Below, piece after piece: positions 27,056 to 35,394 of a DNA stretch of 64,000 bases. Origin of the DNA: Longimicrobiales bacterium. GTDB taxonomy: Bacteria; Gemmatimonadota; Gemmatimonadetes; Longimicrobiales; Gaopeijiaceae. Made by a program: the position numbers and the translations under genes. Within the stretch, counting starts at the first letter, position 1; the number at the start of each line of letters is the position of its first letter. Location of the stretch: assembly GCA_951813395.1 (NCBI GenBank), contig OX638356.1, positions 475,340 through 539,339 on the forward strand, given 5' to 3'. The notes beneath the pieces were generated by a model. That model was not told the origin of the DNA. It worked only from the letters and a program-made list of their open reading frames with translations, and made no database searches.

Positions 27056-27940
27056 ATGGATGGAACCGCCTCTCGGAGCACGTTGACCGGGGGGCGGTTC
27101 CGCTCTTCAGCGGCGCTTTGCCGCTGGGCCTTTGTGGGGGCGCTGGCGGCGTGGGTTGCCAGCGCCCCCGTCTACGCTTCGGCGCAGATCAGGGTGGAAG
27201 GCGAGGTCATTGATGCGGCGACCGGCCTGCCTGTCGCCGGGGCCATCGTCCACCTGCCGGATCTCGACATGGGCACCATATCGGACCAGCTCGGGTACTT
27301 CGTGCTCGATGCGATCCCTCGCGGTGTTCTAGTCGTCTCGGCCCACCGAGCAGGCTACGAAGCGATTGAGCAGGAAGTTCGCGTCGTGCCCGGCGAGCTT
27401 TGGGAGGTCCGTCTGACTCCGGCGGCGATTGAGATCCGGGGGGTTGAGGTGTCGGCCGCGACGAGTCAGGAGCTCGAGGCTGCTCGTACCGGCCGCCGGT
27501 CGGACTTCATTTCGCCGTCCGCAGTGGCCGAGGCCGCCGAGAGGACGAACAAGGTGCTGGAGGTGCTGAGGTCGAAGGCGCCGCCGCGGCTACGCATACG
27601 TCAGGAGGGGGGTGCCGGGGGCGTAACCTTCTGTATCGAGTCCTCGCGGCGCCGGCCATCGATACAGGAACTCGTCGACCGCGGTGACGGGTGCCGTCCA
27701 ACTCTTCTGGCGCTTGATGGCGTGATCATCTACGCGCCGCCATCGATGACCCTGGCCGGCATGCAGTCGCCGAGTCTGCCTGCGGACGTCGCCGCGCTGC
27801 TCCTGAACCAGAATCCGCAGGAAATCCGCAGCATCCGCGTCCTGTCGCCGGCGGATGCGTTCTTCCGCTATGGAGAAGCGGGCCGCTCCGGCGCGGTCGA
27901 GATCGTTTCCGTGCACCCGGGCAGGCCGAAGGGCAGTTGA
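27056..27940 (+). CDS. Secreted carboxypeptidase-regulatory / plug-like protein without barrel
   Basis: 294 residues. An N-terminal signal is followed by a CarboxypepD_reg-like fold (VEGEVIDAATGLPVAGAIVHL ... VSAHRAGYEAIEQ). A plug-like half follows, ending in IRSIRVLSPADAFFRYGEAGRSGAVEIVSV, which mimics the SusC 'IexIevlkGxxAxxlYG' element. No barrel is present. A central CIESS...DGC pair may form a disulfide. It is the third gene in the SusC/SusD run, so it may be an accessory periplasmic adaptor, but this is inference. The stop overlaps a possible TTG of the next gene. Confidence 0.66.
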   Translation: MDGTASRSTLTGGRFRSSAALCRWAFVGALAAWVASAPVYASAQIRVEGEVIDAATGLPVAGAIVHLPDLDMGTISDQLGYFVLDAIPRGVLVVSAHRAGYEAIEQEVRVVPGELWEVRLTPAAIEIRGVEVSAATSQELEAARTGRRSDFISPSAVAEAAERTNKVLEVLRSKAPPRLRIRQEGGAGGVTFCIESSRRRPSIQELVDRGDGCRPTLLALDGVIIYAPPSMTLAGMQSPSLPADVAALLLNQNPQEIRSIRVLSPADAFFRYGEAGRSGAVEIVSVHPGRPKGS

Positions 27941-27957
27941 GTCGTCCCGTCGTGGGG

Positions 27958-29496
27958 ATGCGGCCGCTGCTCCTGCCGTGCGCCTCGGCGGCGGGGCTGG
28001 CGGCGTTTCTGTTGCACCCCGGGGTGCGCGGCGAACCGGCAGCCTTCTGGACGGTTGCCGCGGCGGTGGTCGGGATTCTCGTGTGGACGGGGTGGCTTTT
28101 CGTGTCGCGCCGGGAGCGCGGCGAGGACCTCACGCTGGAACTGGTTCTTCGCACGCCCCACTGGATGCAGACGCTGGCGCAGGGAGCGCTGCTGGTCTGG
28201 TGGGGCACCTACGTCGACATGGTGCGGCTGTGGGCGCCGATGATCCTCGCGCAGCTGCTGCTGGCGGTGGCTGTCGAAGGCCTCTTTGCGTTGACGCGGA
28301 GGGGCCGCTACGCGGCGGGGCTGGGCGTCGTGCCGGTGATTTTCAGCGTCAATCTCTTCCTGTGGTTCACCGGACCCTGGTTCTTCTTCCAGTTCGCGAT
28401 GGTGGTGCTCGTCTACGCCGGCAAGGAATTCATCCGCTGGCAGCTGGACGGTCGCTCGCGGCACATCTTCAACCCGTCCGCGCTGGCGCTTTCGGTGGCG
28501 GCGGTGCTGTTGATCGCGACCGGATCGACCGAAATCACACTCGGGATCGAGATCGCGCAGAGCCAGTTCATCCCGCCGCAGATGTTCCTGGTGATCTTCC
28601 TGGCCGCCGTACCCGCGCAGCTTCTCTTCGGCGTGGCGATGATGACCATGCCGGCGGTGCTCACGATCCTCGGCTTCGGTCTCCTCTACCAATCCCTGAC
28701 GGGGATCTACTTCTTCTACGACGCCTACATCCCCGTTTCGGTCTTCCTGGGCCTGCACCTCCTCTTCACGGACCCGGCTACCTCGCCCCGCACCGATGTC
28801 GGGCGGATCCTCTTTGGTCTGATCTACGGCACAGGCGTCGTCACCAGTGCCGCGCTGCTCGACGCGATCGGCGCGCCGAACTTCTACGACAAGCTGCTGC
28901 CGGTGCCGATCCTGAATCTGCTCGCGCCGCGGCTGGACTGTGCGGCCAACGCGCTGGGCGAGAAGCTGTGGGTGGCGGGCAGGCTGCAAACACCTGGAGG
29001 GGCGCGTCGCCGCGTAGCCACCGTCGCGGTGTGGGGCACGACCTTCCTGACCATGAGCGCCGCGGGTGGCGTCGGCGACAACCACCCGGGGCAGTACTAT
29101 CCGTTCTGGCGGGAGGCGTGCGAGGCTGGCAACGACCGGGCGTGCAACTACTCTGGCGTCATGCTGCAGAACTTCTGCGACCGGGGCTCGGGGTGGGGCT
29201 GCAACGAGTTCGGCGTGCTGCTGGTGACGCTGGACCGCGACTTCCTCGGCGCCGCACGCGAATTCGAGCAGTCATGCCGGCTGGAGTACGGGCCCGGCTG
29301 CGGCAACCTGCAGATGCTGGCGGACGGTGACGAACGTTTGGGGCAGGGGGTGAGGGCCTTCCAGCGGGGGAGACCGCCGCCGACCGAGTGGCCGATCGTC
29401 CTGATGGGCAGCAAGGGACCCGTCGCCGAGCGCGACCCGGAGGCGCTGCGGGCGCTGGGCTGTGAGCGGGGCTGGCGGGAACTGGGGTGTACGTGA
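27958..29496 (+). CDS. NqrB/RnfD-fold membrane protein fused to Cys-rich Sel1-like domain (copy 1)
   Basis: 512 residues. The N-terminal two-thirds is polytopic and matches the NQR2/RnfD/RnfE fold: FIRWQLDGRSRHIFNPSALALS and LHLLFTDPATSPRTDVGRILFG are diagnostic. I see no (S/T)GAT flavinylation motif, so covalent FMN is unlikely. After the last helix comes a Sel1-like, cysteine-rich tail (REACEAGNDRACNYSG ... FCDRGSGWGCNEFG ... QSCRLEYGPGCGNL) and a conserved end ERDPEALRALGCERGWRELGC. The start at ATG 27958 is set by alignment with the paralogue (MRPLL). TTG 27937 would overlap the previous stop. Function unknown. Confidence 0.75.
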   Translation: MRPLLLPCASAAGLAAFLLHPGVRGEPAAFWTVAAAVVGILVWTGWLFVSRRERGEDLTLELVLRTPHWMQTLAQGALLVWWGTYVDMVRLWAPMILAQLLLAVAVEGLFALTRRGRYAAGLGVVPVIFSVNLFLWFTGPWFFFQFAMVVLVYAGKEFIRWQLDGRSRHIFNPSALALSVAAVLLIATGSTEITLGIEIAQSQFIPPQMFLVIFLAAVPAQLLFGVAMMTMPAVLTILGFGLLYQSLTGIYFFYDAYIPVSVFLGLHLLFTDPATSPRTDVGRILFGLIYGTGVVTSAALLDAIGAPNFYDKLLPVPILNLLAPRLDCAANALGEKLWVAGRLQTPGGARRRVATVAVWGTTFLTMSAAGGVGDNHPGQYYPFWREACEAGNDRACNYSGVMLQNFCDRGSGWGCNEFGVLLVTLDRDFLGAAREFEQSCRLEYGPGCGNLQMLADGDERLGQGVRAFQRGRPPPTEWPIVLMGSKGPVAERDPEALRALGCERGWRELGCT

Positions 29497-29497
29497 C

Positions 29498-31033
29498 ATG
29501 CGTCCCCTCCTGGTGCCTGGCGCCGCCGCCGGAGTACTGGCCGCCTATCTGCTGATTCCGGGGGTGCGGGCCACGCCGGGTCTGCTCTGGGCATTCACGG
29601 GGTCGGCGGCTGGTGTGCTCGCCTGGACGCTCTGGCTTGCGGTGTCGCGCCGTCGCGCCGGGGAAGCTCTCGTGCTCGAGTTCCGGGCCATCAGACCGCA
29701 CTGGGTCCAGCTGCTGGCCCAGGGAACCGTCCTGGTCTGGTGGGGATGGTTCGTGCCCGCGGTCTATGAGTTCGCGCCATTCATCCTCGCCCAGCTGGTG
29801 CTCGCAGTGGCCGTCGAGGCGCTGTTCAGCTGGACGCGGCGCGGCAGCCATACGCTTGGGTTCGGGCCCGTCCCGGTCGTCTTCAGTCTGAATCTCTTCC
29901 TCTGGTTCGACCTGCCGTGGTTCTTCTTGCAGCTGGCTATGGTGGTGTTTGTGTACGTCGGCAAGGAGTTCATTCGCTGGCGGATGGGGGGGCGGTCGCG
30001 GCACATCTTCAATCCGTCGGCGTTCGCGCTGGCGGTGGCTTCGCTGGCGCTGATCGCGACCGGAACGACCGGAATCACGCAGGGCGTAGAGATCGCGCAG
30101 TCGCAGTACGTGCCGCCTTTCATCTTCGTGGTGATCTTCCTGGCGGCTCTACCGGGGCAGCTGCTCTTCGGTGTTGCCACCATGACGATGCCCGCGGTGG
30201 TCACTATCTGGGGGTTCAGCGCCGCGTATCTCGCGGTTACCGGCGAGTACTTCTTCTACGACGCCTACATTCCGATCGCGGTGTTTCTGGGGCTGCACCT
30301 ACTCTTTACCGATCCGGCGACGTCACCGAGGTCCGAACTCGGCCGTGTGCTCTTCGCCGTACTCTACGGGAGTGGAGTCGTCGCCAGCGTCTTCGCGCTG
30401 AACGCGGTGGGGGCGCCGCCCTTCTACGACAAGCTGTTGCCGGTGCCGATCCTCAACCTGCTGGCGCCGACACTCGATCGGACGGCCGACGCGCTCGCGG
30501 GGCGATTGGGGATCGCGTGGGCGGCCGGCCGGGAGGCCGTGCCGGCGCGGCGGCGGGTCGCGACGGTGGGGCTCTGGGCCGCGGTCTTCGCCACTCTCAG
30601 CATCACTGGCGCGCTCGGCGACAACCATCCCGGCCAGTACTACCCGTTCTGGCGGGACGCGTGCGAGGCGGGCAGCGTGCGCGCGTGCGACTACACGGGC
30701 GTCATGCAGCAGAGCTTCTGCGACCGTGGCTCCGGTTGGGCCTGCAACGAATTCGGCATCCTGATGGCCGAGACGGACCGGGATTTCCGGGGCGCCGCGG
30801 GCGAGTTCGACCGCGCGTGCAGGCTGGGATTCGGGCCCGGGTGTGCGAATCTGCAGGCGCTCATGACAGGGAACCCGGACGTGGCCCGGCCCGGCGCGCT
30901 GCAGCGGGACCGGCCTCCGCCCGGCGACCTGCCCATCGTGCTGCGCGGCAGCAAGGGCCCGGTCACCGAGCGAGACCCGGAGGCGCTCCGCGTGCTTGGG
31001 TGCGAGCGGGGCTGGCGGGAGCTGGGGTGTTGA
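29498..31033 (+). CDS. NqrB/RnfD-fold membrane protein fused to Cys-rich Sel1-like domain (copy 2)
   Basis: 511 residues, a tandem paralogue of the preceding gene with the same architecture throughout. Shared blocks include FNPSA, FFYDAYIP, GLHLLFTDPATSPR, FYDKLLPVPILNLLAP, GDNHPGQYYPFWR and FCDRGSGW-CNEFG. ATG 29498 lies one base after the first copy's TGA, so both are translated from one message. Again there is no (S/T)GAT motif and no other Rnf or Nqr subunit nearby. The Cys-rich tail should lie outside the cytoplasm if its disulfides form. Function unknown; a role tied to the SusCD locus is inference from position. Confidence 0.75.
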   Translation: MRPLLVPGAAAGVLAAYLLIPGVRATPGLLWAFTGSAAGVLAWTLWLAVSRRRAGEALVLEFRAIRPHWVQLLAQGTVLVWWGWFVPAVYEFAPFILAQLVLAVAVEALFSWTRRGSHTLGFGPVPVVFSLNLFLWFDLPWFFLQLAMVVFVYVGKEFIRWRMGGRSRHIFNPSAFALAVASLALIATGTTGITQGVEIAQSQYVPPFIFVVIFLAALPGQLLFGVATMTMPAVVTIWGFSAAYLAVTGEYFFYDAYIPIAVFLGLHLLFTDPATSPRSELGRVLFAVLYGSGVVASVFALNAVGAPPFYDKLLPVPILNLLAPTLDRTADALAGRLGIAWAAGREAVPARRRVATVGLWAAVFATLSITGALGDNHPGQYYPFWRDACEAGSVRACDYTGVMQQSFCDRGSGWACNEFGILMAETDRDFRGAAGEFDRACRLGFGPGCANLQALMTGNPDVARPGALQRDRPPPGDLPIVLRGSKGPVTERDPEALRVLGCERGWRELGC

Positions 31034-31045
31034 GCCCCAAGCGGG

Positions 31046-31588
31046 CTAAGCCGAGGAATCCGTAGCGGGTGCCAGTTTTTCGATTTCGGCACCGGCTGTG
31101 GCCTCGGCAGGCAGCGCGAGTTCCTCCTGAGATGCGAGTTCTCGAACCCTCGGCTTGAAGACGGGCACGACAATGTCCGGCAGTCCAGCTCGTCCCGCAA
31201 AGCTCTGGACCAATTCGCGCCAATAGGGCCACACGTTATAGGTCCCATTCAACTCGGCGAAGTGCTGAAGCGCGTCATGGGGGTAGGCGTGCGCACCCTC
31301 CAAACGGTAGGTCGCGAGGAAGATCGCGGTCAACTCGACCAACGCTCCACATTCCACATCTGCTTCGCCACCAGGATTGGCTTCGAACTTGAGATCGATT
31401 TGCACGAACACTCGATCGGGGTCGGACGCCCTCAGCTTGTGGCTACATCGAAGCCAGTTCCCGAGCCGCAGTTCAGTCGGCTTGGCGATGGTGTGAAGGG
31501 TCGCCTTCATTCTCGTATCGGTCAGGATCACCGATTCGATCTGAACGTGCTGAGACACCAAGCTGGCACGCTCAATGTTGGTCGTCAT
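31046..31588 (-). CDS. SecB-like chaperone of a toxin-antitoxin-chaperone (TAC) module
   Basis: 180 residues, SecB fold. It has an N-terminal beta region rich in hydrophobic contacts (VQIESVILTDTRMKAT), ECGALVELTAIFLATYRL in the core and the family C-terminal helix NVWPYWRELVQSFAGRAGLPDIVVPVFKP. An Ala/Glu-rich tail extends it by about 35 residues beyond housekeeping SecB. In TAC systems such a chaperone binds the antitoxin tail and lets it fold and neutralise the toxin. ATG 31588 lies 16 nt after the antitoxin stop, with GAGGG as ribosome site. GC is visibly lower than in the flanks. Confidence 0.8.
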   Translation of the reverse strand: MTTNIERASLVSQHVQIESVILTDTRMKATLHTIAKPTELRLGNWLRCSHKLRASDPDRVFVQIDLKFEANPGGEADVECGALVELTAIFLATYRLEGAHAYPHDALQHFAELNGTYNVWPYWRELVQSFAGRAGLPDIVVPVFKPRVRELASQEELALPAEATAGAEIEKLAPATDSSA

Positions 31589-31604
31589 GGTGCGGCCCTC
31601 GTGT

Positions 31605-32063
31605 CTATGCTACCAGGCGGAGAGGAGGTGCGGAGCTAGGCGGGTGCTCGTCCTCCTTTTCATCGGCTCCGCAACGCGGACGGAAGAGTGGCGGCTCTTC
31701 CGCAATCTGTGGCTCGGTCCAGAACCTGACCGGTTGTGAGCGGCCCAACTCGATGGTCTGGTCGTCTACCGAATTGAAAACTGACGCGGTTAGTTCCTCC
31801 AGGCGGATCTCCGCTCGCATCTCGCAGGCAAATGCCAGCGATGCCAAGCTCCGGAGGGTCATGTTTCGGGATCCGCTGAGGAGCTGGGTGATGTTGGCGC
31901 GACTGGTGCCCAGCTTTTCCGCCACCTCAGCCCGCGTGAGGCCCTGTTCGTCCATAGCCTTCCAGATTGCCTCTGTGGTCCAGAGGATCAGCCGCTCTTC
32001 CTCGTAGCGCCTGCGGGCCTCCGGGGTCTCCGTCTGTCGCTTGATCCAGGCCTCGTTCGCCAC
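31605..32063 (-). CDS. XRE/HigA-type antitoxin with extended C-terminal tail
   Basis: 152 residues. An N-terminal helical stretch is followed by a HTH_XRE domain (about 42-66: LTRAEVAEKLGTSRANITQLLSG), which should bind the operon promoter. A tail from about residue 95, rich in Pro and acidic residues with a central aromatic patch (VRFWTEP) and FRPRCGADEKEDE, is longer than in ordinary HigA. That is where chaperone-addiction sequences sit in known TAC antitoxins. The GTG start follows the toxin TGA without a gap and AGGGAG lies 8 nt upstream, so toxin and antitoxin are coupled. Confidence 0.82.
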   Translation of the reverse strand: MANEAWIKRQTETPEARRRYEEERLILWTTEAIWKAMDEQGLTRAEVAEKLGTSRANITQLLSGSRNMTLRSLASLAFACEMRAEIRLEELTASVFNSVDDQTIELGRSQPVRFWTEPQIAEEPPLFRPRCGADEKEDEHPPSSAPPLRLVA

Positions 32064-32429
32064 TCATCTCTCCCTGTTCTGCTCGAACTCTCTCTTCATG
32101 CTGATTGCCCTGCGGATGTCCTTTCTCGGCAGCTTGTCCGACTTTTTCCGGACTCCGAAGGCCAGAATCAGATCTCCGCCGGCGTAAAAGCACGGTATCC
32201 TGATCTGCCCACTCTTCACCTCGAATACGCCATCCGTGTCCCGCAGTTTCCTGAACTGGGTTCGGCTCCGAACGCCCTGTCCGTCCCCCAGCATTTGAAA
32301 AATCACATCAAGCTTCGTGCGCTCACGTGGCGTTAGCTCATCCAGGAAATCCCCTGCGGGGCAGCGCCCGCTCGACCGAACCATGCAGGTGACTGTGAGT
32401 CGTTGGCCCTCATATTCTGGAGGTCGCAC
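32064..32429 (-). CDS. HigB/RelE-superfamily toxin (Gp49-like)
   Basis: 121 residues. The core shows the RelE-like pattern: VRSSGRCPAGDFLDELTPRERTKLD near the start, a strand pair LRDTDGVFEVKSGQIRIPCFY, then LILAFGVRKKSDKLPRKDIRRAISMKREF. That is the ending typical of HigB/Gp49 mRNA interferases. They cleave mRNA at the ribosome when the antitoxin is lost. GTG 32429 gives the full N-terminal strand; ATG 32384 would remove it. It is first in the operon, before antitoxin and chaperone, the same order as the mycobacterial HigB-HigA-SecB-like module. Confidence 0.82.
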   Translation of the reverse strand: MRPPEYEGQRLTVTCMVRSSGRCPAGDFLDELTPRERTKLDVIFQMLGDGQGVRSRTQFRKLRDTDGVFEVKSGQIRIPCFYAGGDLILAFGVRKKSDKLPRKDIRRAISMKREFEQNRER

Positions 32430-32471
32430 CGGTCATTCTCTGGAGTCCGCCAATAGCCATTAGTAACTCAT

Positions 32472-32500
32472 ATATTAACATCTGCGGTTCCGGCGAGCAA
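32472..32500 (-). promoter_or_regulatory. Candidate promoter of the TAC module
   Basis: In an AT-rich patch (32461-32482) the minus strand reads TAATAT (32477-32472). TTGCTC lies 17 bp upstream (32500-32495). Matches to consensus are partial (4/6 and 3/6) but the spacing is exact. The AT-rich patch also holds repeated TAAC motifs where the antitoxin might bind. Confidence 0.4.
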
Positions 32501-32597: not shown

Positions 32598-35243
32598 CTA
32601 CCCCTTCGGCTGATCCCCCTGCAACTCCAGGATGTCCACGTTCCACTGGCTGTCGCCGAGCAGGTGCTTCACGAAGTACTCCGCGCGGAGCCAGAACCAG
32701 TAGTTGCTCATGTTTCCGAAGCCGTGGCGCTGGCCGGGGAAGATGAAGAAGTCGAAGCGCTTGTTCGCGCGGATCAGCGCCTCGGCCATGCGGAAGGTGC
32801 CGGCGTGGTGGACGTTGTTGTCCACGTCCCCCGTCGTGAGCAGCAGGTGACCCTTCAGGTTCGCCGCGATGTCCGAGTTCCGGTCGATGTCGTACTCGAA
32901 GCCCGTGACGGCGCCGGTTGAGTCCTTTACCTCCTTGACCCCGTCGTGCTTCTCCGACCAGTTGGCGTTGTAGACGTCGTTGTTGTGGTTCCCGGCTGAC
33001 GAGACGGCCACCTTGAAGAAGTCGGGGTAGACGAGCATGGCCGCGGTGGACATGAAACCGCCGCCTGAGTGCCCGTAGATCCCCACGCGGTCGATGTCGA
33101 TGAAGCCGTGGCGGTCGGCGAGCTGCTCGATTCCGGCCTTCTTGTCGGCCAGACCGTAGTCGCGGAGGTTCCCGTACCCGTAGTTGTGGTACCACTTCGA
33201 GCGGTCCGGGTGACCGCCCCGGTTCCCGATCGTGATGACAATGAAGCCGAACTGCGCGAGCGCCTGCTCCGTCGTGTTGAGCGAGAACGACTTCGACACC
33301 GATTCGGTCTGCGGCCCGGGATATACGTACGCGATGATCGGGTACTGCTTCGCGGGATGGAAATCGTATGGCTTGTACATGACTCCGTAGATATCCGTTA
33401 CCCCGTCGTCGGCCTTCACCTGGTAGGTCTCGGGGTACTGGTATCCGGCCGCCTCCAGCGCCGACAGATCGGCGGTCTCCAGGTCCATGATCCTGCGTCC
33501 GGACGCGTCGAAGAGCGCCGAGGCGGGGTTGGTGTCGACGCGTGAATAGTTGTCGACGAAGTAGCGCGCGGATTCCGACACGACGGCCTGGTGGTCCTGG
33601 TTGCCGGGGTTGAGGAGCGTCAGGCCGCTGCCGTTCAGGCCGACGCGGTACATGTGCATGTAGTACGGGTCCTCGCCCTCCTCACGTGCGTTGGCCCGGA
33701 ACACCGCGTATCCGTCCTCCTCATTCACTCCCATCAATGCGTCGACGTGCCAGGGGCCTTCGGTAAGACGAGTGCGGACCGTTCCGTCCGGCGCGTAGCG
33801 GTACAGGTGCGCCCACCCGTCCCGTTCCGACCACCAGATGAGGTCCCCGCCCTCCAGGCGGCGAGGCGTCTGGTGCTCCACGTACGTGTTCAGGCGCTCC
33901 TCGATCACGGCGGCGACCTCGCCGGTCGCAGGATCGGCCCTCATCACGTCCACCCGGTGCTGGTCGCGGCTGCGGCGCCAGAAGTAGAGCTCGTTGCTGC
34001 TGTCCGACAGCCACTTCGTGATGTTGGGCTCGTCGCTGCCCCCTCCGCCCCCGCCGAAGAAGAAGAACCCGCCGCCGCCCTGTCCCGGCGCGTTGAAGAT
34101 CCCCATGCGCTGGTCCTTCCAGGGATCGTCGTCGATCTGCGTCATCTCGCGCGATTCCATGTCGAAGGCGTGGAGGCTGGTCTGCGTGACGTTCTCCTCG
34201 CCCGGCATCTCGTACCGGTAGCTCTCCAGCTTCGGCCGCGTGTTGCCCACGGCGTGGACGACCCACAGATGGCCCACTTCACGGCGGTCCTGGCGGGTGA
34301 GCGCGAAGTAGCGGGAGTCGTGCGACCACGTCGCCCCCGACCGCTGGCGCTTCTTGAGCTCCTCCTCGGTCTCCTCGTCGTTCTGGCCGCGTCCCTGAAA
34401 GCCCCAGCTGAAGTCCTTCTCACCGTCGGTGGTCAGCTGGATCTCCTCGACCTCCACGTCCTCTTCGGCTTCCTCGGCCTCGTCACCGGACTTGCCCCGG
34501 CGCGCGTCGACGATCTTCATGTACTCCTCGTAGCTCATCATCCACAGGTTGAATTCGCGGCTGAAGACGACCCAGGCCGTGTCCGGCGAGACGCTCGCCC
34601 AACCGGGGTGGCTGTCCGGCTCCTCGTAGTCCTCGAGCTCGCGGAGCGTGCGCGTCGTGACGTCGTACTCGAAGTGGTGGACCCTCTTGCGCGTCCTGGG
34701 CCTGGGCGGGCCGCGCTGCTCGTCCTCCTGGTCTTCCTCGACGTCCTCTTCGTCGTCCTCTTCCTCTTCCACCTCCTCGTCCTGCGAGGACTCCACGTCG
34801 AACTGGATGGTGTTGGGTCCCGTGAAGCGGATGGCGCGGATCGGCAGGTGCTGGGCGTCCCACGGATCCCGCGTGATGCGGGTCAGCTCGGCGGCGATGC
34901 GGTCGTTGTCGAAGATCTCGGTCTTCGTGCCCTGGCCCGGATCGACGAGGTAGAAGTGTCGGCCTTCCGAAGTCTCCCACTCGTACCAGAAGCGGTCCGT
35001 GTCCTCGATCCAGCGCGGCGCGACGCGCAGCGAATGGACCAGGTCGTTGACCTTGTAGGGGGCGAAGCGGGCCGCCAGCTCGAAGTTGGCCGAGCCGGGT
35101 CCTCCGACCTTGACCGAGCCCTCCTCCTGGGCGGCAACGGGATTGGTTGCGGCCCCGAAGGCCAGGAAGGCCGTGGCGAGGAAGCCCATCGCAAGCGCGA
35201 GGGGCAGGCTGGAACTCGGACGGGTTACGGTGCGGCGGATCAT
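32598..35243 (-). CDS. Secreted S9 family peptidase (DPP-IV-like), copy A
   Basis: 881 residues. The signal peptide ends at PVAAQ. An N-terminal beta-propeller (DPPIV_N) precedes an alpha/beta-hydrolase peptidase domain. The catalytic triad is Ser726 (GHSGGG), Asp808 (GDVDNNVH) and His840 (QRHGFG). Two low-complexity insertions interrupt the propeller: a run of about 25 mostly Asp/Glu residues (about 151-176) and a Gly/Phe-rich loop (GQGGGGFFFFGGGGGGSDEP). Such enzymes remove dipeptides from peptides in the periplasm or medium. ATG 35243 has GGAGG upstream. Divergent from another S9 peptidase. Confidence 0.92.
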   Translation of the reverse strand: MIRRTVTRPSSSLPLALAMGFLATAFLAFGAATNPVAAQEEGSVKVGGPGSANFELAARFAPYKVNDLVHSLRVAPRWIEDTDRFWYEWETSEGRHFYLVDPGQGTKTEIFDNDRIAAELTRITRDPWDAQHLPIRAIRFTGPNTIQFDVESSQDEEVEEEEDDEEDVEEDQEDEQRGPPRPRTRKRVHHFEYDVTTRTLRELEDYEEPDSHPGWASVSPDTAWVVFSREFNLWMMSYEEYMKIVDARRGKSGDEAEEAEEDVEVEEIQLTTDGEKDFSWGFQGRGQNDEETEEELKKRQRSGATWSHDSRYFALTRQDRREVGHLWVVHAVGNTRPKLESYRYEMPGEENVTQTSLHAFDMESREMTQIDDDPWKDQRMGIFNAPGQGGGGFFFFGGGGGGSDEPNITKWLSDSSNELYFWRRSRDQHRVDVMRADPATGEVAAVIEERLNTYVEHQTPRRLEGGDLIWWSERDGWAHLYRYAPDGTVRTRLTEGPWHVDALMGVNEEDGYAVFRANAREEGEDPYYMHMYRVGLNGSGLTLLNPGNQDHQAVVSESARYFVDNYSRVDTNPASALFDASGRRIMDLETADLSALEAAGYQYPETYQVKADDGVTDIYGVMYKPYDFHPAKQYPIIAYVYPGPQTESVSKSFSLNTTEQALAQFGFIVITIGNRGGHPDRSKWYHNYGYGNLRDYGLADKKAGIEQLADRHGFIDIDRVGIYGHSGGGFMSTAAMLVYPDFFKVAVSSAGNHNNDVYNANWSEKHDGVKEVKDSTGAVTGFEYDIDRNSDIAANLKGHLLLTTGDVDNNVHHAGTFRMAEALIRANKRFDFFIFPGQRHGFGNMSNYWFWLRAEYFVKHLLGDSQWNVDILELQGDQPKG

Positions 35244-35394
35244 TCCTGGCCTCCGTTGGGTGGGAAGCGGCGTGGGTGGCGCCGAGTGGCGCACCATACC
35301 GTGGACACGCATCTTCGCCGAATTGATTGTGGGTCGGTCTGGCGGGCCGAGGCCGACCGCGAGTGCACCGAAGAGAAATGGGAGACTTTGCGCG

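What the first reader, a model, noticed from the sequence alone, without database searches (positions are those of the whole stretch)
31046..32429. Toxin-antitoxin-chaperone (TAC) operon: HigB-like, HigA-like, SecB-like
Seen: three abutting minus-strand genes with a RelE/HigB-type toxin, an XRE antitoxin with a long tail and a SecB-fold protein, in that order, with 0-nt and 16-nt spacings. Known: in mycobacterial TAC modules a dedicated SecB-like chaperone must bind the antitoxin for it to neutralise HigB. Inference: this is a chaperone-addicted TA module in a Gemmatimonadota-like genome, where I am not aware of a description.
Basis: partly seen in the sequence, partly recalled or inferred. 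Interest (0 to 1): 0.85.

Follow-up and report, generated by a model that had tools for sequence, protein, structure and literature searches.

The report
Chaperone-dependent toxin-antitoxin operon (TAC)
This is a three-gene toxin, antitoxin and dedicated chaperone operon of the kind known from Mycobacterium tuberculosis, here in a Gemmatimonadota genome, and comparing its relatives across phyla suggests that its antitoxin ends in a built-in "destroy me" tag that the chaperone has to hide.

Summary
Three minus-strand ORFs abut (0-nt and 16-nt gaps): a Gp49/HigB toxin with the HigB catalytic residues, an XRE/HigA-type antitoxin with a ~60-residue tail, and a third protein with no Pfam or NCBIfam hit. 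Its AlphaFold2 model is SecB: the best PDB match is Rv1957, the SecB-like chaperone of the M. tuberculosis TAC module (VIA Z 16.3; profile E 1e-9). All three parts keep their order in relatives from several phyla. In the window's genus the site is empty in other species, and decayed copies that keep the chaperone have lost or broken the toxin. So it is a new member of a known kind, a TAC module; its chaperone dependence is strongly predicted but untested. New point: antitoxin tails are hypervariable except at the very end, where 19 of 22 finish in -[A/V]A, against 1 of 36 partner toxins and chaperones and 6 of 154 background ORFs. One same-genus antitoxin ends NDLALAA, the last seven residues of its own genome's tmRNA tag. 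I infer a ClpX degron that the chaperone masks, generalising what is known for M. tuberculosis HigA1. Trigger, target and defence role remain unknown.

The parts
32064..32429 (-). Toxin: HigB/Gp49-type RelE-superfamily ribonuclease, 121 aa, with E70, K72, R77, K95 matching E66, R68, R73, K92 of S. pneumoniae HigB
31605..32063 (-). Antitoxin: XRE/HigA-like HTH protein, 152 aa
31605..31787 (-). Antitoxin C-terminal tail (residues ~93-152), the presumed chaperone-addiction (ChAD) region; hypervariable, and mostly low pLDDT in the model of the L002 relative
31608..31622 (-). Last five antitoxin residues LRLVA: candidate ClpX degron; -[AV]A ending in 19 of 22 related antitoxins
31046..31588 (-). 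SecB-like chaperone (SecB-TA type), 180 aa, invariant WPYWRELVQ helix motif
32463..32480 (-). Conserved element TGTTAA-N7-TTAC upstream of the toxin; candidate promoter/operator for autoregulation
32598..35312 (-). Flank: S9-type peptidase gene, marks one side of the insertion site in the genus (not part of the module)
29462..31033 (+). Flank: RnfD/NqrB-like membrane protein gene, marks the other side of the site (not part of the module)

Best explanation
A type II toxin-antitoxin-chaperone (TAC) module. The HigB-type toxin is a ribosome-associated mRNA endonuclease. The HigA-type antitoxin neutralises it and, through its HTH, probably represses the operon at the conserved upstream element. 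The antitoxin's long tail binds the dedicated SecB-like tetramer; the tail also ends in an ssrA-like ClpX degron (-LVA here). While the chaperone holds the tail, the antitoxin is soluble and protected. When the chaperone is titrated away (by unfolded exported proteins or a phage protein), ClpXP destroys the antitoxin and the toxin is freed. Shown here: the three genes, folds, catalytic residues, conserved order, conserved C-terminal motif, ClpX and tmRNA in the genome. Inferred: chaperone dependence, degradation by ClpXP, autoregulation, the trigger.
For: Domains and coordinates. SecB fold, closest to Rv1957. Operon order conserved across phyla. Toxin catalytic residues conserved. Antitoxin profile hits HigA structures. 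A same-phylum two-component relative without a chaperone (L061, toxin plus antitoxin) has a much shorter antitoxin, 117 aa against 152, as expected if the long tail goes with the chaperone. -[AV]A endings: 19 of 22 antitoxins against 0 of 19 toxins, 1 of 17 chaperones, 6 of 154 background ORFs. G392 antitoxin ends NDLALAA and its own genome's tmRNA tag is ANNDLALAA. ClpX present. M. tuberculosis HigA1's ClpX degron is its last two residues Val-Ala (PMC8165232), and E. coli CmdA is degraded by ClpP when its SecB-like chaperone leaves (PMC11618068). In five same-family copies decay has hit the toxin (L001, L004, L006, L007, L035); none found keeps an intact toxin with a broken chaperone or antitoxin. 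No canonical SecB above threshold in the genome.
Against: No experiment exists for this module. Three antitoxins (L005, L012, L017) lack the -[AV]A ending, and the chaperone-less L061 antitoxin ends RAA, so the ending is neither universal nor exclusive. Other TAC classes (e.g. L092, L095, L102, L104 here, and three tested TACs judged from primers in PMC5105189) lack it. The tail in the fused AF2 model is mostly low confidence, so docking on the chaperone was not shown. The antitoxins are related to each other, so counts are not independent events.
Confidence: 0.82

Rival explanations
1. A plain two-component HigBA module beside a SecB-like export chaperone that works for the Sec pathway and has nothing to do with the antitoxin.
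For: The genome has no other SecB that scores, so an export role is open; SecB-like Rv1957 is reported to be able to act in export in vivo (background in PMC5105189).
Against: The chaperone gene travels with the TA pair across phyla, is missing in most same-genus species that presumably export proteins normally (15 of 23 without a match), and lies at a variable site. The long antitoxin tail goes with it. Nearest fold is the TA-dedicated chaperone.
Confidence: 0.07
2. An anti-phage abortive-infection module in which a phage protein titrates the chaperone, as in CmdTAC; the core mechanism is the same but defence is the selected function.
For: CmdTAC precedent. TAC operons of this antitoxin class sit beside repressor genes in prophage contigs L039, L041, L042, and a SecB-like gene lies close to cI in Escherichia phage PhiR70_1. 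Sporadic, mobile distribution.
Against: No PADLOC TAC hit; the window copy is flanked by housekeeping-type genes, not a defence island; no infection data. It is a function on top of, not instead of, the best explanation.
Confidence: 0.3
3. A decaying selfish element with no present function: most copies in the genus are gone or broken and this one is simply not yet inactivated.
For: In 23 same-genus genomes only four copies look complete (G000, G097, G151, G392); others are remnants or empty sites. GC of the three genes (0.57-0.63) is below the window's 0.67.
Against: All three window ORFs are intact, catalytic residues are kept, and the upstream element and C-terminal motif are conserved.
Confidence: 0.2

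Closest known systems
TAC module of Mycobacterium tuberculosis (HigB1-HigA1-SecB-TA, Rv1955-Rv1956-Rv1957)
   Same: Gene order toxin-antitoxin-chaperone, HigB/HigA families, SecB-like fold, extended antitoxin C-terminus, hydrophobic degron-like Val-Ala end
   Different: Chaperone only ~16% identical in aligned positions; antitoxin tails share no obvious ChAD sequence; the toxin profile finds S. pneumoniae HigB rather than the TAC toxin; different phylum
TAC modules of Geobacter lovleyi (HigBA), Vibrio cholerae RC385 (MqsRA), Methylomonas methanica (HicAB) tested in PMC5105189
   Same: SecB-like chaperone needed by a TA pair, with a C-terminal antitoxin extension
   Different: Other TA families or unrelated tails; judged from published primers their antitoxins end AQG, CYV and QYA, not -[AV]A
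CmdTAC (E. coli anti-phage system, PMC11618068)
   Same: Toxin-antitoxin-chaperone architecture; SecB-like chaperone; antitoxin degraded through ClpP when the chaperone is titrated
   Different: Toxin is an mRNA ADP-ribosyltransferase, not a HigB ribonuclease
Two-component HigBA (e.g. S. pneumoniae HigBA, 6af3)
   Same: Toxin fold and catalytic residues; HTH antitoxin
   Different: No chaperone and no long antitoxin tail

Membership tests
TAC (toxin-antitoxin-chaperone) modules | Type II toxin gene with its antitoxin | tested here: met
   Gp49 and HTH_3 above Pfam cut-offs; profile hits HigB 6af3 and HigA chains
TAC (toxin-antitoxin-chaperone) modules | SecB-like chaperone encoded in the same operon | tested here: met
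   SecB fold, Rv1957 best; 16-nt gap; conserved order
TAC (toxin-antitoxin-chaperone) modules | Antitoxin carries a C-terminal extension absent from two-component relatives | tested here: met
   152 aa against 117 aa in the chaperone-less L061; tail variable in length and sequence. Only one clear two-component relative compared
TAC (toxin-antitoxin-chaperone) modules | Neutralisation requires the chaperone | not testable with these tools
   Needs a growth rescue assay
TAC (toxin-antitoxin-chaperone) modules | Chaperone binds the antitoxin tail (ChAD) | tested here: inconclusive
   Fused L002 antitoxin-chaperone AF2 model: tail mostly pLDDT below 50, one weak strand 112-118; contacts could not be read
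SecB family PF02556 (sequence model) | Score above Pfam gathering cut-off | tested here: not met
   No hit. Not a defining feature of TAC chaperones: 33 known ones were absent from PF02556 (PMC4257090)
SecB fold | Four-stranded sheet with long C-terminal helix as in SecB/Rv1957 | tested here: met
HigB/Gp49 toxins | Conserved catalytic basic residues | tested here: met
   R77 and K95 invariant in 19 homologues, K/R72 nearly so; aligned to R73, K92, R68 of S. pneumoniae HigB
NCBIfam HigA equivalog TIGR02607 | Score above curated cut-off | tested here: not met
   16 bits against 47.7; so called HigA-type, not that equivalog

The most novel reading that the evidence does not exclude
In this class of TAC module, across several phyla, the antitoxin is encoded with a permanent ssrA-like tag at its end (in one species the genome's own tmRNA tag, letter for letter over seven residues), so that the SecB-like chaperone and ClpX compete for one tail and the chaperone's availability alone decides whether the toxin is free.
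Probability: 0.55. Interest if true: 0.65.

Novelty: new member of a known kind. Interest (0 to 1): 0.5.

Why it matters
TAC modules are a rare case where a toxin's fate hangs on a dedicated chaperone, and how the toxin is freed is known in very few cases. Here is a family with intact and decayed copies in one genus, an empty integration site, a short-tailed chaperone-free relative and a strongly conserved C-terminal end. That makes the chaperone-versus-ClpXP competition model directly testable in a phylum where I found no such system described. The chaperone is invisible to Pfam and NCBIfam, so such modules are probably under-counted.

Tried and rejected
Pfam, NCBIfam and PADLOC scans of the chaperone gave nothing. 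phmmer of the toxin alone against PDB gave nothing; the profile worked. A fused antitoxin-chaperone model (stop codon of L002 read as a residue) did not settle tail docking. The sigma-70 scan found no promoter; the conserved upstream element came from alignment instead. The idea that -[AV]A ends mark all TAC antitoxins was rejected: several other TAC classes in the phylum lack them. The idea that L006 and L035 are functional antitoxin-chaperone fusions was set aside: both lack a toxin and parts of both domains, so they look like deletion remnants.

Full report
Observation. The GTG starts of toxin and antitoxin match ATG or GTG starts at the homologous position in relatives.

Identity of the parts. 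The toxin scores above the Pfam cut-off for Gp49 and the antitoxin above that for HTH_3. Nineteen toxin homologues share invariant R77 and K95. Their profile finds S. pneumoniae HigB 6af3 at E 6e-9; counting along that alignment, window E70, K72, R77 and K95 fall on E66, R68, R73 and K92, the catalytic residues discussed for HigB toxins including the M. tuberculosis TAC toxin (PMC9098466). The antitoxin profile finds HigA structures. The chaperone has no Pfam, NCBIfam or PADLOC hit, but its best PDB sequence match is the SecB-like chaperone Rv1957 (E 0.011 alone; E 1e-9 with a profile). Its AF2 model (pLDDT 86.7) matches Rv1957 best, Z 16.3, ahead of E. coli SecB, Z 13.2.

Conservation as a unit. 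A scan of one genome for each of 84,980 species with the chaperone gave 18 loci. Toxin, antitoxin and chaperone are found together in Gemmatimonadota, Rhodanobacter, Methylomirabilota, Phycisphaerales, Acidobacteria and Deltaproteobacteria loci, and antitoxin plus chaperone with a more divergent toxin-like ORF in others. In 395 Gemmatimonadota genomes 13 carry this chaperone type and 14 have a PF02556 SecB, several of which also sit next to TA-like genes of other families. The own genome has just this one and no PF02556 hit.

Site and decay. In the genus the module lies between an S9 peptidase gene and an RnfD-like gene. In four species the two are separated by 10 to 96 bp with no module, and one (L045) keeps only a scrap of antitoxin. 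L001 has a truncated toxin and L004 (same family) a frameshifted one, with antitoxin and chaperone intact; L006, L007 and L035 have lost the toxin and fused or lost the rest. None found has an intact toxin with a broken chaperone or antitoxin. This is what an addictive module predicts, though any TA pair would show the same for its antitoxin. Complete copies in the genus: the window, G097, G151, G392. A second site, beside a CcoH/cytochrome-type gene and a VapB/FitA-like gene (named by eye), is used by L003, L035 and apparently L051.

The tail. Antitoxin tails vary greatly in length and sequence, as reported for ChAD regions (PMC5105189). A two-component relative in the same phylum, L061, has toxin and antitoxin but no chaperone, and its antitoxin is 117 aa against 152.

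The end of the tail. Nineteen of 22 antitoxins end in -[AV]A, against 0 of 19 toxins and 1 of 17 chaperones from these loci, and 6 of 154 long ORFs (Fisher p 3e-11 and 2e-17, not corrected for relatedness). All six groups formed at 45% identity have it in most or all members. Further TAC-like loci found later also have it (L066 SAA, L067 LAA, L142 AAA). The window antitoxin ends LRLVA. The G392 antitoxin ends AAASNDLALAA, and the tmRNA tag of that same genome is ANNDLALAA (L135), an identical stretch of seven; the chance from tail composition is about 2e-7 over 22 tails. In M. tuberculosis the last two residues Val-Ala of HigA1 are the ClpX degron, within the same region that binds SecB-TA (PMC8165232). 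ClpX is present in the window's genome. I infer a ClpX degron that the chaperone masks. Against: three antitoxins lack it, the chaperone-free L061 ends RAA, other TAC classes lack it, and a test against five chaperone-free relatives is small (p 0.006).

Regulation. Upstream of the toxin, GTTAA-N7-TTAC is conserved in six loci whose surroundings differ (L004 departs at one base of the first half); it is a candidate operator. The GC of the three genes is lower than the window, in keeping with horizontal arrival.

Limits. A fused antitoxin-chaperone model gave a confident SecB half and HTH but a mostly disordered tail, so binding was not shown. Chaperone dependence, degradation, toxin target and trigger are all inferred. 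Verdict: a TAC module by every test available here, a known kind in a new phylum as far as I could find, with a conserved degron-like end as the new, testable point.

Noticed in passing
L018:3697-5174: In Calidithermus chliarophilus a SecB-like gene follows two small genes that look like a DUF4160/DUF2442-type pair (names from memory), a TA family I have not seen linked to SecB.
   Followed up: no
L104 (G285:C144), L095 (G078:C2), L091, L096, L103: SecB-family genes in Gemmatimonadota directly after BrnA-like, HicB-like and MqsA-like antitoxins (assigned by eye): the phylum seems rich in different TAC types.
   Followed up: partly
L006:4836-5282 and L035:1229-1689: Independent deletions join the antitoxin N-terminus to the chaperone C-terminus; toxin absent. 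L006 is one open frame; in L035 the joint changes frame.
   Followed up: partly
L039, L041, L042, L142 and L024 (Escherichia phage PhiR70_1): TAC-like operons in viral or prophage contigs; in four of the five the operon lies next to a CI/LexA-like repressor gene, hinting at a superinfection or defence role.
   Followed up: partly
window 27937-31033: Two tandem paralogous RnfD/NqrB-like membrane proteins with similar cysteine-rich C-terminal parts; the gap beside them takes different inserts in different species (L043, L048, L049).
   Followed up: no
L062-L065: The same HTH antitoxin domain with a different, VapB-like C-terminus, in two of four cases beside a PIN-like (VapC) gene, with no Gp49 toxin or chaperone: possible domain shuffling between TA families.
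   Followed up: no
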